From the NCBI RefSeq assembly GCF_001517835.1, contig NZ_LOQG01000001.1:124001-188000 (forward strand): DNA of 64,000 bases, in the 5' to 3' direction. Positions 1,792 through 8,059 of this stretch are shown piece by piece (position 1 is the first letter of the stretch; each line of letters begins with the position of its first letter). A model generated the notes under the pieces. That model ran no database searches, was not told where the DNA came from, and worked only from the letters and a program-made list of their open reading frames with translations. Made by a program: the position numbers and the translations under genes. The stretch comes from Caviibacter abscessus (GTDB taxonomy: Bacteria > Fusobacteriota > Fusobacteriia > Fusobacteriales > Leptotrichiaceae).

Positions 1792-1827
1792 AAAAAGTTG
1801 ATAGGTTTTTGTACTTATCAACTTTTT
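1792..1827. terminator. Bidirectional intrinsic terminator between glgA and a small membrane protein gene
   Basis: A 12-bp perfect stem (1792-1803 with 1816-1827) has A-runs on the left arm and T-runs on the right. It can therefore end transcription from glgA on the plus strand and from the convergent gene at 1831-2190. Confidence 0.85.
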
Positions 1828-2220: not shown

Positions 2221-2249
2221 TTGACTAAAATTATAATAAAATGTATAAT
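2221..2249 (+). promoter_or_regulatory. Housekeeping-type promoter for nifJ
   Basis: TTGACT (2221-2226) and TATAAT (2244-2249) are separated by exactly 17 bases, a near-consensus sigma-70/A promoter. Transcription would start near 2256, about 55 bases before the nifJ start codon. Confidence 0.85.
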
Positions 2250-2309
2250 AATCTTACAAATTTCTAACTATTGCAATCTAAATAATTGCCTAGAAAACGG
2301 AGGACTAAA

Positions 2310-5300
2310 TTGAAAACAATGGATGGTAATCAAGCTGCGGCATATATTGCATATGCTTTGACTGAAGTAGCAGCTATTTATCCTATAACTCCTTCATCAT
2401 CAATGTCTGAATACATTGATGAATGGGCTTCGCAAGGTAAAAAAAATATTTTTGGTCAAACAGTTAGACTAATTGAAATGCAATCGGAAGCTGGTGCAGC
2501 AGGTACAGTTCACGGTTCGCTTCAAGCTGGTGCTTTGACAACAACTTTTACCGCATCGCAAGGATTGCTACTTAAAATTCCAAATATGTTTAAAATTTCA
2601 GGTGAGTTATTACCAGGTGTAATACATGTTGCATCAAGAAGTATATCAACTCACGCACTTTCCATTTTTTGCGATCATCAAGATATTTATAGTGCCCGAA
2701 TGACAGGTTTTGCAATCTTATCCAGTAATAATGTGCAAGCTGTAATGGATTTAGCACCAATAGCACATCTTAGTGCAATAAAAGGTAGAGTTCCATTTCT
2801 ACATTTTTTTGATGGATTTAGAACTTCACATGAAATACAAAAAATAGAAGAAATTGATTATAAAGATATTGAAAAACTTATTGATAAAAAAGCTTTAAAA
2901 AAATTTAGAGACAATGCACTTAACCCTGAGCATCCTGTAACAAGAGGAACATCACAAACAGAAGATATCTTTTTTCAAGTAAGAGAATCACAAAATAGAT
3001 TTTATGATGCAATTCCTGATATCGTAAATAGCTACATGCAAAAAATATCAAAAATAACTAAAAGGGAATATAAACCATTTACATATTATGGTGATGAAAA
3101 TGCAACTAAAATAATAATTGCAATGGGTAGTGTTACAGATACAATAAGTCAGGTAGTTGATTATTTAAATGAACAAGGTGAAAAAGTTGGGCTTATTACA
3201 GTTCACCTTTATAGACCTTTTTCTTTTAAATATTTATTTAATGTAGTACCAAAAACTGTAAAAGCAATTGCCGTTTTAGATAGAACAAAAGAACCTGGAA
3301 GTTCTCAACCATTATACTTAGATATACGTGATGCGTTTTACAACTCAAATTTAAGACCTATAATTGTAGGAGGTAGATACGGTCTTTCATCAAAAGATAC
3401 AACACCTGCACAAATATTATCGGTTTTTAACAATTTAAGTCTTAAAGAACCTAAAAATGATTTTACAATAGGTATAATAGATGATGTTACTTATAAATCA
3501 TTAGCTGTTGCTTCTGAATTAGACTTAAGTAAAAACGAGTTAGAATGTATATTTTACGGTATGGGTTCTGATGGAACAGTAAGTGCAAATAAAAATACTA
3601 TAAAAATAATTGGAGATAAAACCGATAATTATATTCAAGGCTTTTTTTCATATGATTCAAAAAAAGCAGGTGGACTTACCAGGTCTTATCTTAGAATTAG
3701 TAAAAATCAAATAAAGTCACCTTATCTTATACAAAAACCAAATTTTGTTGCTTGCTCAACATTTTCATATTTAACTAAATACGATATGCTCGAAAATATG
3801 AAAGACAATGGTATTTTTTTATTAAATACTATGTATGACAAAGAAACAATAATAAATAAATTGCCAGATAATTTTAAAAAGCAATTAGCTAAAAAAAATA
3901 TAAGGTTATTTATAATAAATGCAACAAAATTATCGTATGAACTTAAACTTGGAAATAGAACAAATACTATATTACAATCAGCTTTTTTTAAATTAACGAA
4001 TATTATTGATTATAAAGAAGCTAAAAATTTCATGAAAGAGTATGCGTTAAAAACATATTCAAAAAAAGGTATGGATATAGTTGAAAAAAACTATAATGCC
4101 ATTGATGCCGGAGATAGAATTGAAGAGGTTATTGTAGATAAAAATTGGGAAAATATCGAAACATTTTTTAAAGAAATGAAGTTAAGTACATTTATGCAAA
4201 AAATATCAAATCCAATCAATTCATTGAAAGGTTATGATATACCTGTATCTGCATTCGTAGGTCATGAAGACGGTACTTTTGAGCATGGATCAGCTGCACT
4301 TGAAAAAAGAAGTATTGCAACTATGGTTCCAAGATGGCGTCCCCAAGAGTGTATACAATGTAATCAGTGTGCTTTTGTATGTCCACATGCAACAATAAGA
4401 CCTTTTTTAATTGACGATGAAGAGTATAAAAATGCTCCAAATATATTGCAGACTATCAAACCTATAGGTAAAGGCATGGAAAACTTGAGATACATTATAC
4501 AAGTGTCTCCGGAAGACTGTACAGGATGTACAGCTTGTGTTGATATATGTCCTGCAAAAAATAAAGCTTTAGTAATGGTTCCAATTGAAGAAGAAATTGA
4601 AAGAAAAGAAGATGAAAATGCAAGATATTTATATGAAAAAGTAAGCTATAAAGATAATTACTTACCAAAAACAACAGTAAAAGGTTCTCAATTTGCAAAA
4701 CCACTATTTGAATTTTCAGGTGCTTGTGCAGGTTGTGGTGAAACTCCATATATTAAATTACTTACACAATTATATGGTGAAAGAATGATAATAGCAAATG
4801 CAACAGGCTGTTCTTCAATATATGGAGGCTCGGTTCCATCAACAGTTTATACAACTAATTCTTGTGGTCAAGGTCCTGCTTGGTCTTCTTCACTATTTGA
4901 AGATAATGCAGAATATGGATATGGGTTATATGAAGCATCTGAAACATTAAGAAAAAAAGTTATTTCACTAATGAAAGATGCAATTAATAATGACAATATT
5001 GATTTAACCTTAAAAGAAAAATTTAACTTATTTATTGAAAATGAAGATGAAAATTTGAAAAATGAAATTGTAGCTTATATTGAAAAATTAGAAGATAAGG
5101 AAATAATTTTAAATAAAATTTATGAGTTGCGACAATATATGTTAAAAAAATCAGTCTGGATAATTGGTGGAGATGGTTGGGCATACGATATAGGGTATGG
5201 AGGACTAGATCATGTTTTATCTACAGGAGCTGATGTAAATGTTTTAGTATTAGATACAGAAGTATATTCAAATACTGGAGGACAAGCATCTAAAGCTACA

Positions 5301-5810
5301 CCTACAGCAGCTATTGCAAAATTTTCAGCATCTGGTAAAAGAACAACTAAAAAAGATTTGGCATCTCTTATGATGACATACCAAAATATATATATTGCAA
5401 GAGTAGCAATGGGAGCAAATCAAAATCAAACGATACGTGCATTTAAAGAAGCTCAAGAATTTAAAGGACCATCACTTATAATAGCTTATTCACCTTGTAT
5501 AGAACACGGAATAAAAGGTGGTCTTATGAGTCAAACAGAAGAAAAATTAGCAACTGAAGTAGGATATTGGCCTTTAATCAGATTTAATCCTGATTTAATT
5601 GAAAAAGGGAAAAATCCTTTACAAATTGACTTTAAAAAACCAGATTGGGATAAATATGAAGATTTTTTAATGAATGAAAACAGATTTGTACGTTTAAAAA
5701 ATGAATTTCCTGACGAAGCAGAGAGATTATTAAAATTAAACAAGCAATCCGCTATGCAAATATTTAATTATTACGAGAAACTAGCATCACTTGATTATTC
5801 AAAGGAATAA
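2310..5810 (+). CDS. nifJ: Pyruvate:ferredoxin (flavodoxin) oxidoreductase
   Basis: This is a single-chain PFOR that oxidises pyruvate to acetyl-CoA and CO2 and passes electrons to ferredoxin or flavodoxin, the central step of anaerobic fermentation. I place the start at TTG 2310 (protein begins MKTMDGNQ, 1166 aa) because GGAGG at 2299-2303 lies six bases before it; an upstream in-frame TTG at 2286 has no such site. Visible parts, in order, are the N-terminal pyruvate-binding region (PITPSS), two ferredoxin-type 4Fe-4S motifs (CIQCNQC near residue 681 and CTGCTAC near 737), the cysteine pair CAGCGE, and the thiamine-diphosphate region (GGDGWAYDIGYGG) with the C-terminal SNTGGQASK motif. Two downstream competence-type genes follow with almost no gap. 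Confidence 0.97.
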   Translation: MKTMDGNQAAAYIAYALTEVAAIYPITPSSSMSEYIDEWASQGKKNIFGQTVRLIEMQSEAGAAGTVHGSLQAGALTTTFTASQGLLLKIPNMFKISGELLPGVIHVASRSISTHALSIFCDHQDIYSARMTGFAILSSNNVQAVMDLAPIAHLSAIKGRVPFLHFFDGFRTSHEIQKIEEIDYKDIEKLIDKKALKKFRDNALNPEHPVTRGTSQTEDIFFQVRESQNRFYDAIPDIVNSYMQKISKITKREYKPFTYYGDENATKIIIAMGSVTDTISQVVDYLNEQGEKVGLITVHLYRPFSFKYLFNVVPKTVKAIAVLDRTKEPGSSQPLYLDIRDAFYNSNLRPIIVGGRYGLSSKDTTPAQILSVFNNLSLKEPKNDFTIGIIDDVTYKSLAVASELDLSKNELECIFYGMGSDGTVSANKNTIKIIGDKTDNYIQGFFSYDSKKAGGLTRSYLRISKNQIKSPYLIQKPNFVACSTFSYLTKYDMLENMKDNGIFLLNTMYDKETIINKLPDNFKKQLAKKNIRLFIINATKLSYELKLGNRTNTILQSAFFKLTNIIDYKEAKNFMKEYALKTYSKKGMDIVEKNYNAIDAGDRIEEVIVDKNWENIETFFKEMKLSTFMQKISNPINSLKGYDIPVSAFVGHEDGTFEHGSAALEKRSIATMVPRWRPQECIQCNQCAFVCPHATIRPFLIDDEEYKNAPNILQTIKPIGKGMENLRYIIQVSPEDCTGCTACVDICPAKNKALVMVPIEEEIERKEDENARYLYEKVSYKDNYLPKTTVKGSQFAKPLFEFSGACAGCGETPYIKLLTQLYGERMIIANATGCSSIYGGSVPSTVYTTNSCGQGPAWSSSLFEDNAEYGYGLYEASETLRKKVISLMKDAINNDNIDLTLKEKFNLFIENEDENLKNEIVAYIEKLEDKEIILNKIYELRQYMLKKSVWIIGGDGWAYDIGYGGLDHVLSTGADVNVLVLDTEVYSNTGGQASKATPTAAIAKFSASGKRTTKKDLASLMMTYQNIYIARVAMGANQNQTIRAFKEAQEFKGPSLIIAYSPCIEHGIKGGLMSQTEEKLATEVGYWPLIRFNPDLIEKGKNPLQIDFKKPDWDKYEDFLMNENRFVRLKNEFPDEAERLLKLNKQSAMQIFNYYEKLASLDYSKE

Positions 5811-5812
5811 AA

Positions 5813-6247
5813 ATGAAAAGAAAAAACAAAGGATTTACATTGACAGAAATTATAATAGTCTTATTTTTAGTTTCTGTAGCATACTTGTTTACTACACGAT
5901 TACTTGAATATTTTAATGAAATAAGAGCATTTAGAACTAGAGTTAAAATTGTGAATGCAATAAACTACATACAAAACAAAGCAATATATGAAAATAAAGG
6001 ATATGAAATTAACTTTAATCTAAGTAATAAAAAAATAAAGTATATAGATAATGTGATAACATTAGATAATAAATTTGATTATATAACAAAAAATAAAAGT
6101 AATGATTTTACAAGATATACTACAAAATATGGAAATTTTGACAAGGGATTTACAATACAAATAAAAAGAAAAAATAAGTTGTATTATAACATAATTGTTG
6201 ATACAACTAACGCATTAAATGTCCCAATAGTTAAGGTGTCAAAATGA
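5813..6247 (+). CDS. Type IV pilin-like protein (pseudopilin) with prepilin leader
   Basis: The protein is 144 aa. It opens with a short basic leader and the class III prepilin signature KGFTLTE, followed by a hydrophobic helix. A prepilin peptidase would cut after the glycine at residue 7, leaving an N-terminal Phe with Glu at position 5 of the mature protein. The rest is a small Lys- and Asn-rich globular domain without a recognised subclass. It starts two bases after the nifJ stop and overlaps the comEC-like gene by four bases (ATGA). The neighbouring DNA-uptake channel gene makes a minor competence pseudopilin the most likely role, which is inference from context. Confidence 0.75.
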   Translation: MKRKNKGFTLTEIIIVLFLVSVAYLFTTRLLEYFNEIRAFRTRVKIVNAINYIQNKAIYENKGYEINFNLSNKKIKYIDNVITLDNKFDYITKNKSNDFTRYTTKYGNFDKGFTIQIKRKNKLYYNIIVDTTNALNVPIVKVSK

Positions 6248-7293
6248 AAAAATATATAACTTTTTTGATTATATATCTAATATATATTTTCTTTACTACA
6301 TATAAAGGAGAAGTCATATATACAAAGAGTGTATATATTGATAGTAATCTAGTATATGTCAATAAAATTAATAATAAATTTTTGTTTAAACCTTTAGTTG
6401 AATCAAATAAATACGGAATAGAGAGTAGTGGTAATTTTACTCTCTATTTCAATAATGAAGAATTAATATATGTAAAAGAAAGTAAATTAAATATTTTTAG
6501 AAACTATATAAGAAATAGAATTAATAAAAAATTAAATTTCAAATTAAATAAAATATCAAAATCAATTATTTTAAATGAAAAATCACATTTAAATAAAAAA
6601 ATATATAAAAATTTAGGGCTAAATCATTTGATAAGCATATCTGGTTTACACATTTCAATAATATATATGTTACTTTCAAACTTTCTATATTTTAGCAATA
6701 AAAAAATAAAAATTATAATAATCTTATTAATTTTAGCTTTATATACAGCAATTTTAGGATTTAATATACCTATTTTAAGAGCATATTTTATGATTTTTTG
6801 CATTTCAATATCAAAATTACTAAATAAAAAAATTTCTAGTAAAGATTCTTATTTTATATCAATGGTTTTAATATTATTAATTAATCCACTTCAAATTTTT
6901 CACTTATCATTTGCTTTAAGTTATTTACCTTTATTTGTAATTATTTTTATAAAAGAAAAAAATATTATAATTAAAAGTATATACATTCAAATAATTTTAT
7001 TTCCAATAAATTTATATTTTTTCAAATGTATATATCTTTTTTCATTTATATTAAATCTCATATTTATACCTATATACAGCATATTACTTCAATTGATATT
7101 TATATGCATTATCTTTCCAATTCAATTTTTGAATTTTATAACCGTAAGATATTACATTACAATTGAAATAATATTGACTTATTTATCAAAATTTAAAATA
7201 TTTTGTATAAAATTCGAAAACAGCAGTATACTAATTTTAGTTATTTTATACATGCTAATATTTTATTGCATAAAAAAATTTCAGATGATATAA
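6244..7293 (+). CDS. comEC: Short ComEC/Rec2-family DNA uptake channel protein
   Basis: ComEC forms the inner-membrane channel for single-stranded DNA in natural transformation. The core Competence-domain signature is visible as HLISISGLHIS (near residue 130), followed by NIPILRAYFM and NPLQIFHLSFALSYL, amid about nine or ten hydrophobic segments. At 349 aa it is about half the length of full ComEC (usually 700-800 aa). The N-terminal extracytoplasmic domain is reduced and the C-terminal metallo-beta-lactamase-like domain is absent. No frameshift is seen, and the frame ends cleanly just before the next promoter and gene. It is translationally coupled to the pseudopilin gene. Confidence 0.8.
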   Translation: MKKYITFLIIYLIYIFFTTYKGEVIYTKSVYIDSNLVYVNKINNKFLFKPLVESNKYGIESSGNFTLYFNNEELIYVKESKLNIFRNYIRNRINKKLNFKLNKISKSIILNEKSHLNKKIYKNLGLNHLISISGLHISIIYMLLSNFLYFSNKKIKIIIILLILALYTAILGFNIPILRAYFMIFCISISKLLNKKISSKDSYFISMVLILLINPLQIFHLSFALSYLPLFVIIFIKEKNIIIKSIYIQIILFPINLYFFKCIYLFSFILNLIFIPIYSILLQLIFICIIFPIQFLNFITVRYYITIEIILTYLSKFKIFCIKFENSSILILVILYMLIFYCIKKFQMI

Positions 7294-7327: not shown

Positions 7328-8026
7328 ATGCTTCATAAATTTAATTATTTTGAACCACTACATATACAGTCATTTATATTTTACCTTATATTAACAATCG
7401 TAATTATATCTGTTCCTTTTATTATAAGAACAGATTATAAGGGGTATTACACAAGATTTTTAGGCTATTTTTTATTATTTGCTAAAATTTTTGATATATG
7501 GTATAGAATATTTATAGAACAAGAAAAATGGTTTTATACAATACCACTTAATTTATGTAATATATCTCTTATTATATCAGGTTTATTCTTTATTAAGCGA
7601 AGTAATCATTTGTTTAATTTAGTTTATTTCTGGTTTACAGGAGCAATACTAGCTGTAATATTACCAGGAATTGAATATTACCATACAAGATTTTATGTAC
7701 ATGTATTTATGGGTACACATTTTCTTGAAATAATGACTGTAATATATGGATTTATTCATCTTGATGTTAGAATTACAAAAAATGGATTAAAATGGGCAAT
7801 ATTGGGATATATCGGTATGTGTATAACAGGTTTATTAATTAATAATATTTTAGGCACAAATTTTATGTTTGTAAATGATTATATTATTTCAGCAGTAAGT
7901 TTTATTAGACCTTTTTGGATATATGTAATAATATTGATCTCACTATTTGTTTTATCAATGATACTTACATATTTACCGTTTTTACACATTGACAATGAAG
8001 AAATTGAAGAAAAGAGTATAAATTAA
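7328..8026 (+). CDS. YwaF/TMEM164-like (TIGR02206-type) integral membrane protein
   Basis: The protein is 232 aa with about seven hydrophobic helices. The pattern IPLNLCN in the third segment, the conserved histidines in the middle helices (YYHTRFYVH, GTHFLEI) and the late FVNDYIISAVSF segment resemble the TIGR02206/YwaF family (related to TMEM164), whose bacterial function is not established. AGGAGG at 7311-7316 precedes the ATG by 11 bases, slightly long. It appears monocistronic, between its own promoter and a strong terminator. The family assignment comes from recalled motif resemblance only. Confidence 0.6.
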   Translation: MLHKFNYFEPLHIQSFIFYLILTIVIISVPFIIRTDYKGYYTRFLGYFLLFAKIFDIWYRIFIEQEKWFYTIPLNLCNISLIISGLFFIKRSNHLFNLVYFWFTGAILAVILPGIEYYHTRFYVHVFMGTHFLEIMTVIYGFIHLDVRITKNGLKWAILGYIGMCITGLLINNILGTNFMFVNDYIISAVSFIRPFWIYVIILISLFVLSMILTYLPFLHIDNEEIEEKSIN

Positions 8027-8059
8027 AAGGGTAAAGATCAAAAATCTTTATCCTTTTTT
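8025..8059. terminator. Bidirectional intrinsic terminator
   Basis: Left arm 8025-8038 and right arm 8044-8057 form a stem of about 13-14 bp (AAGGGTAAAGAT against ATCTTTATCCTT, one G-T-type mismatch) with flanking A and T runs. It lies between convergent genes ending at 8026 and 8061. Confidence 0.8.

What the first reader, a model, noticed from the sequence alone, without database searches (positions are those of the whole stretch)
5813..7293. Pseudopilin and a half-length ComEC are attached to the nifJ transcript
The prepilin-type gene begins two bases after the nifJ stop and overlaps the comEC-like gene by four. So a minor pilin and a DNA-channel gene appear to be read from the strong nifJ promoter. 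The ComEC has the Competence core but lacks the C-terminal metallo-beta-lactamase-like domain and most of the N-terminal domain. This suggests either a minimal uptake channel or a decaying one, and possible coupling of competence to fermentative metabolism.
Basis: partly seen in the sequence, partly recalled or inferred. Interest (0 to 1): 0.5.

Follow-up and report, generated by a model that had tools for sequence, protein, structure and literature searches.

The report
Competence pilin and channel behind nifJ
A small bacterium makes a probable DNA-grabbing pilus tip protein and a cut-down DNA import channel from the end of a metabolic gene's message; the parts are of known kinds, and the unusual points are their pairing and their attachment to that message.

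Summary
nifJ (2286-5810), a prepilin gene (5813-6247) and a short comEC (6244-7293) lie head to tail with a 2-base gap and a 4-base overlap; a TMEM164-type gene and a terminator follow. The prepilin is a GspH/FimU/FimT/ComGD-type minor pilin by family, profile and fold, and sits directly upstream of comEC in 29 of 29 family genomes examined. In a sister family its counterpart opens the pilus operon. The short ComEC is no local decay product: none of 19 ComECs scanned in the order matches the nuclease domain or DUF4131, and comEC is needed for transformation in Fusobacterium nucleatum (cited work). Attachment to nifJ is derived: nifJ genes of other genera end in a hairpin, absent here and in two relatives of genus g5, where the gap has shrunk to 2-10 bases. 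Pilin, PilD, secretin, PilC and ComEA-like genes exist elsewhere. Motor ATPase and DprA were not found, but part of this assembly is withheld and an essential control gene is missing too, so no loss can be claimed. Coupling to fermentation is untested. Best reading: a working nuclease-less competence system whose pilin-channel pair was fused to nifJ by genome compaction.

The parts
1792..1827 (+). intrinsic terminator-like hairpin that ends the upstream (glycogen synthase-like) unit
   Evidence: 15-pair stem with T-run
2221..2249 (+). promoter-like site upstream of nifJ (TTGACT, 17, TATAAT)
   Evidence: 11 of 12 consensus; the number of such sites in the region is what chance gives
2286..5810 (+). 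nifJ, pyruvate:ferredoxin (flavodoxin) oxidoreductase, 1174 aa
   Evidence: NCBIfam TIGR02176, 1749 bits, cut-off 911
5813..6247 (+). GspH/FimU/FimT/ComGD-type minor pilin, 144 aa
   Evidence: N_methyl 8.3e-6; ComGD model 8e-12, below its cut-off; AlphaFold pLDDT 87, best folds FimU, Xcp pseudopilus chain, EpsH, GspH, FimT
6244..7293 (+). comEC, Competence domain only, 349 aa
   Evidence: PF03772 4.7e-35; profile of 19 order members matches solved ComEC 9vc6 (E 1.1e-35) and 30bt
7328..8026 (+). TMEM164/TP0381-type membrane protein, probably last gene of the transcript
   Evidence: TIGR02206 108.7 bits, cut-off 75; 34 bases after comEC
8025..8057 (+). intrinsic terminator-like hairpin, first one listed after nifJ
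   Evidence: 14-pair stem with T-run

Best explanation
The pair is a two-gene competence unit of the Leptotrichiaceae: a tip-type minor pilin (the ComGD/GspH/FimU position) that probably helps to catch DNA, and the inner-membrane DNA channel ComEC in its nuclease-less form. The rest of the machine is encoded elsewhere: major-type pilin, PilD, three further pilin-like genes, two membrane-complex candidates, secretin and PilC in one operon, plus a ComEA-like protein. The pilus brings DNA through the secretin, ComEA holds it in the periplasm, and ComEC passes one strand inwards. In the lineage of this genome and its nearest relatives the terminator after nifJ and the spacer before the pilin have gone, so the two genes are read from the nifJ transcript and are probably made whenever nifJ is. 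Shown: gene order, families, predicted fold of the pilin, lost hairpin, clade-wide lack of the nuclease domain. Inferred: co-transcription, DNA capture by this pilin, working transformation, compaction as the cause.
For: Pilin directly upstream of comEC in 29 of 29 family genomes examined, of 33 listed. Full-length profile match to the first pilin of the pilus operon of family f4 (148 columns, E 2.7e-15) against 21-64 N-terminal columns for three other pilins of that operon. Fold matches at Z 8.6-12.4 to FimU, Xcp pseudopilus, EpsH, GspH and DNA-binding FimT; the next row is Z 3.5. Own pilus operon with secretin 3.9e-27 and T2SSF 1.2e-40 and PilD; ComEA-like protein with two HHH matches, 3.4e-10. 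19 of 19 ComECs scanned lack Lactamase_B and DUF4131 matches. 100 nt after the nifJ stop: z +0.19, +0.03, -0.14 in this genome, G004, G013; -2.8 to -5.5 in 7 others. Gaps 2, 10, 9 against 78 to about 197. Literature: deleting comEC and pilQ abolished uptake in F. nucleatum (PMC12940168, passages, citing Sanders 2023).
Against: The pilus ATPase was not found in this genome although 59 of 60 genomes have it, nor DprA (55 of 60 have it). Part of the assembly is withheld and PRPP synthetase is not found either, so this neither supports nor refutes loss. The pilin falls below the curated ComGD cut-off (45.7 against 70 bits), and its Foldseek matches stay above E 0.001. The ComEC structure prediction failed (pLDDT 47). 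In 7 other genomes (G013, G040, G052, G055, G056, G057, G059) the ComEC domain match runs through 1-3 stops, which may be C-terminal shortening; not in this genome. pilin and comEC evolve fast (42-45% identity to the g5 genomes, nifJ 73-74%). The strict terminator scan picked up the nifJ hairpin in 1 of 4 relatives scanned, and G012 shows no clear one (z -1.07). No expression or transformation data exist here.
Confidence: 0.68

Rival explanations
1. Relic in decay: the organism has lost transformation and these genes linger in a shrinking genome.
For: Small genome (1.22 Mb), shortest ComECs of the family in this group (324-360 aa), fast divergence, ATPase and DprA not found; in the g5 genome G013 the domain match runs past the end of the frame through three stops.
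Against: Both frames are intact in this genome; first and second codon positions change less than third in pilin and comEC; pilus operon, PilD, secretin and ComEA-like gene are kept. Short ComEC is clade-wide. The absences are void because part of the assembly is withheld.
Confidence: 0.17
2. The pilin and comEC keep a promoter of their own inside the 3' part of nifJ, so that they are not really driven by nifJ.
For: In L063, L058, L092 and L097 a promoter-like site of 10 or 11 of 12 lies between nifJ and the pilin, so separate control looks like the older state. In the window the scan lists sites inside nifJ at 5080 (10 of 12), 5035 and 5358 (9 of 12).
Against: Such matches are as frequent as in shuffles, and the intergenic space is gone.
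Confidence: 0.22
3. The pilus serves adhesion or type II-like secretion, and ComEC is only genomically linked.
For: Fold matches include type II pseudopilins (Xcp, EpsH, GspH), and Competence-domain proteins are nearly universal in bacteria (PMC6299819, passages).
Against: The pilin is fixed next to comEC in 29 of 29 family genomes examined and also in G034 of another family, where a ComEA-like gene is close by. In F. nucleatum pilQ and comEC are both needed for DNA uptake (PMC12940168).
Confidence: 0.1

Closest known systems
ComGD and the Com pilus (Streptococcus sanguinis, Bacillus)
   Same: Best NCBIfam model for the pilin; ComGD is a tip minor pilin that binds DNA together with ComGF (PMC12153270, passages); the own pilus operon has a weak ComGF match (1.8e-4).
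   Different: Score below the equivalog cut-off; the gene sits with comEC and not in the pilin operon; the machine has a secretin.
GspH / FimU / FimT minor pilins
   Same: Predicted fold, Z 8.6-12.4, FimT being the DNA-binding pilin of Legionella.
   Different: About 10% identity; no DNA binding tested.
Fusobacterium nucleatum type IV pilus competence system
   Same: Experimentally competent, with comEC and pilQ needed (PMC12940168).
   Different: In four f4 genomes (L074, L076, L078, L081) the pilin opens the pilus operon, before the ATPase; in the f4 genomes examined comEC is not beside it.
Helicobacter pylori ComEC
   Same: Ends before the nuclease domain (PMC5031224); no EndA homologue (PMC12455585).
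   Different: H. pylori uses an atypical type IV secretion system for DNA uptake, not a pilus (PMC13395361, title and start of abstract in listing).

Membership tests
ComEC / Rec2 | Competence channel domain (PF03772) | tested here: met
   121.7 bits, cut-off 23; profile alignment to solved ComEC chains
ComEC / Rec2 | C-terminal metallo-beta-lactamase-like nuclease domain (optional in the family) | tested here: not met
   no Pfam match in 19 of 19; Competence-only profile known in 6 of 51 competent strains (PMC6299819, passages)
ComEC / Rec2 | DUF4131 / OB fold | tested here: inconclusive
   no Pfam match in 19 of 19; three predicted strands after helix 1, but in a model of pLDDT 47
ComEC / Rec2 | DNA import into the cytoplasm | not testable with these tools
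   needs transformation assay
Type IV prepilin | N-terminal cleavage/methylation motif GFTLTE | tested here: met
   PF07963 25.6 bits over 21.2; TIGR02532 23.4 over 16.3
ComGD equivalog | score over curated cut-off | tested here: not met
   45.7 bits, cut-off 70
GspH/FimU/FimT fold class | long helix plus H-type beta domain | tested here: met
   pLDDT 87; Z 8.6-12.4 in 8 entries, next row 3.5; Foldseek best E 0.011
Type IV pilus competence machine in this genome | PilD, platform PilC, secretin, several pilins, ComEA | tested here: met
   ComEA-like and three of the pilin-like genes only by weak or no family match
Type IV pilus competence machine in this genome | motor ATPase and DprA | tested here: inconclusive
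   not found, but part of the assembly is withheld and PRPP synthetase is not found either

The most novel reading that the evidence does not exclude
A constitutive, nuclease-free DNA import module: the DNA-receptor tip pilin and a 349-residue ComEC stripped to its channel are made on the pyruvate:ferredoxin oxidoreductase message, so that DNA uptake follows the fermentative state, and the second strand is disposed of by a route without ComEC nuclease or EndA. An EndA-type match (PF01223; that EndA belongs to it is recalled) over cut-off was seen in 0 of 60 genomes, this partly withheld one included.
Probability: 0.15. Interest if true: 0.62.

Novelty: new variant of a known kind. Interest (0 to 1): 0.4.

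Why it matters
[quoted passage not shown] pylori do (PMC12455585, passages). An order that uses such a ComEC, with one experimentally competent member, makes this directly testable. The fixed pairing of one minor pilin with comEC also nominates that pilin as the DNA receptor. The nifJ fusion is a clean natural case of a competence pair losing its own promoter region and upstream terminator in a lineage with small genomes.

Tried and rejected
Loss of the pilus ATPase: at first this genome looked like the only one of 60 without it. A joined query also missed Sua5 and its neighbour gene, and a second missed GlmU (only weak hits in part of it), PRPP synthetase and TruA; PRPP synthetase was missed again by family. 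PRPP synthetase should be present in such an organism (general knowledge), and fetched sequence showed a run of N, so I dropped every absence claim for this genome. The completeness figure of 99.44% is no guarantee here.

Decay by truncation: rejected as cause of the missing nuclease domain, since open frames in the 58 genomes with a match run from 325 to 597 aa (G003, at a contig end, 178), and B. subtilis ComEC has 776 (PMC5031224, passages). Shortening at the very C-terminus in some relatives (stops inside the match) remains possible.

ComEC fold: predicted from 5 sequences only, pLDDT 47; not searched. Profiles of the two membrane-complex candidates against solved structures gave nothing or chance-level hits. 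The pilin profile against PDB sequences gave no convincing relative; only the fold did. The search with the window ComEC alone in genome contigs found nothing. A paper on nifJ together with comEC was looked for and not found: two papers held both terms, neither about this by title; Leptotrichia with competence and type IV pili gave four, none about this by title; the Sneathia genome paper has no hit for competence, ComEC, pilus, pilin, nifJ, the Leptotrichiaceae genome paper none for competence, pilus, pyruvate, DNA uptake. This covers only the open library.

Full report
What is there. The window holds nifJ 2286-5810, a prepilin gene 5813-6247, comEC 6244-7293 and a TMEM164-type gene 7328-8026, all on the + strand, closed by a terminator-like hairpin at 8025-8057; another hairpin at 1792-1827 ends the unit before. 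Ribosome-binding-like AAGGA and AAGG lie 6 and 7 bases before the pilin and comEC starts, the first just inside the end of nifJ (by eye). Between nifJ and the pilin there are 2 bases. The promoter-like site before nifJ is good (11 of 12) but such sites are no more frequent in the region than in shuffles, so 'strong promoter' is not established.

Whose genome. The window's assembly has 1,219,211 bases in 40 contigs. Named Leptotrichia records whose contig lengths, 2,261,073 and 84,769, equal those of G021 and G011 place the family as Leptotrichiaceae. A size of 1.22 Mb is the one given for Caviibacter abscessus, the smallest in the family (PMC5093955, passages); that this is Caviibacter is inference.

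The pilin. By family it is a type IV prepilin, nearest to ComGD (8e-12) and, among minor pilins, then GspH (5e-5), below both curated cut-offs. A model from five sequences has pLDDT 87. Foldseek gives chains of FimU, Xcp pseudopilus and EpsH in ranks 1-11, best E 0.011, none below 0.001; the second aligner gives FimU 12.4, Xcp 11.8, EpsH 11.7, GspH 10.4 and FimT 8.6, then nothing above 3.5. A profile of eight such pilins matches the first pilin of the f4 pilus operon over 148 columns (E 2.7e-15), but three other pilins of that operon only over 35, 21 and 64 N-terminal columns (a further one was not tested). So the same minor pilin is first in the pilus operon in four f4 genomes (L074, L076, L078, L081; in L079 it was not seen there) and next to comEC in Leptotrichiaceae. 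ComGD, FimT and, by prediction, ComN of Pasteurellaceae are DNA-receptor pilins (PMC12153270 passages; FimT from a structure title, and PMC8897410 and PMC12616744 in listing). DNA binding by this one is inference.

The ComEC. It has the Competence domain only. The profile of 19 order members matches solved ComEC 9vc6 over 284 residues and 30bt over 258. I scanned 19 of the 58 genomes with a ComEC: 19 of 19 match Competence, none Lactamase_B or DUF4131. Open frames in the 58 are at most 597 aa. In 7 genomes (G013, G040, G052, G055, G056, G057, G059) the match runs through 1-3 stops; where I compared coordinates (G013, G056, G059) these lie at its end, so some ComECs may be shortened further. 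This genome has none. This genome and its g4-g6 relatives have the shortest family members fetched, 324-360 aa. Pimentel and Zhang found a ComEC-type protein in every Fusobacteria strain and a Competence-only form in 6 of 51 competent strains, whose ComECs are 417 to 872 aa long (PMC6299819, passages), so 349 aa is below their range. H. pylori transforms without the nuclease domain (PMC5031224, PMC12455585, passages). In F. nucleatum deletion of pilQ and comEC abolished uptake (PMC12940168, passages; the original by Sanders 2023 is not held). An EndA-type nuclease over cut-off was seen in 0 of 60 genomes, one weak match below it.

Linkage in relatives. Of 33 family genomes listed, 29 were examined at the comEC locus and 29 have the pilin directly upstream (for G019). 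Not examined: G003 (contig end), G009 and G023 (no ComEC match), G020 (not fetched). Of 15 genomes of other families examined, 7 of them with only about 1.2 kb upstream held, one, G034, has such a pilin 87 bases before comEC, with a ComEA-like gene 2.7 kb further upstream; weak hits in G043 and G051 are not adjacent. nifJ is the next gene before the pilin in 10 of 29; in 2 it is further up (gldA-like gene between in G012, a 2075-aa ORF in G014); in 8 there is none on that strand within at least 6.4 kb (G015 has it on the other strand); in G019 none within 2.8 kb (L096); in 8 too little DNA was held to tell.

The fusion is derived. Gaps from nifJ to the pilin are 2, 10 and 9 bases here, in G004 and in G013, but 78 to about 197 in g6, g2 and g3, depending on the start codon taken. 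Folding the 100 bases after each nifJ stop, 11 loci in all: z +0.19, +0.03 and -0.14 for the three fused ones, -1.07 for G012, and -2.82 to -5.49 for the other seven, each with a hairpin and mostly a T-run; in two of the seven (G014, G015) nifJ is not next to the pilin. The strict scan saw the hairpin only in L058 of four scanned; the others have long or bulged loops. Those four gaps also hold a promoter-like site of 10-11 of 12 (same calls). A nifJ tree of 10 rows puts this genome, g5 and g4 in one group (100/100), with this genome outside g4+g5 (98/98); the fused label needs two changes, for instance one fusion and a later insertion in g4 (midpoint root).

Rest of the machine here. One operon elsewhere in the genome holds a GspG/ComGC-like pilin, PilD, three more pilin-like genes (one weakly ComGF-like, the others without a convincing family match), two proteins without family match, a secretin and PilC. 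A protein of about 180 aa with a hydrophobic start and two HHH matches is ComEA-like. Motor ATPase and DprA were not found. This cannot be read as loss: part of the assembly is withheld, and GlmU, PRPP synthetase and Sua5 are missing in the same kind of search. In the five relatives looked at that share the block, the ATPase lies near GlmU, Prs and Sua5, away from the pilus operon.

Selection. Between this genome and G004 or G013 differences by codon position 1, 2, 3 are 0.44, 0.30, 0.50 and 0.44, 0.29, 0.55 for comEC and 0.44, 0.34, 0.58 and 0.39, 0.31, 0.49 for the pilin; nifJ against G004 0.24, 0.13, 0.44. This is the order expected of maintained genes, but third positions are near saturation, and recent decay would not show.

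Verdict. Known parts in a new arrangement. The pair is best read as DNA-receptor-type pilin plus channel, kept working, and fused to nifJ as genomes shrank. Coupling to fermentation is possible but untested.

Noticed in passing
L046:11033-12470 and equivalents in L048, L051, L053, L056, L059, L061, L064: Two adjacent genes of the pilus operon (about 300 and 180 aa; 20-39% identity of the others to this genome's copies) match no family; by position they could be divergent PilM/PilN-type proteins, which a review says Fusobacterium lacks (PMC12940168). PDB profile searches gave nothing convincing.
   Followed up: partly
L049, L052, L057, L062, L065: In these Leptotrichiaceae the pilus ATPase is away from the pilus operon, near Sua5, Prs and GlmU, in four of the five followed by a HAD-type gene.
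   Followed up: partly
genus g6 (G005, G014, G018, G022): DprA is not found or below cut-off in 4 of 4 genomes, although pilus ATPase and comEC are present; masked stretches were not excluded.
   Followed up: no
L014, L016 (G050, G058): ComEC of 553 aa with a C-terminal extension; L014 has no Lactamase_B match, L016 was not scanned; possibly a remnant nuclease domain.
   Followed up: no
L055:1112-7339: A 2075-aa ORF, autotransporter-like by eye, lies between nifJ and the pilin-comEC pair in G014.
   Followed up: no
L083:3073-8250 (G034): ComEA-like, GspH-type pilin and comEC genes cluster within about 5 kb in a genome of another family of the order.
   Followed up: partly
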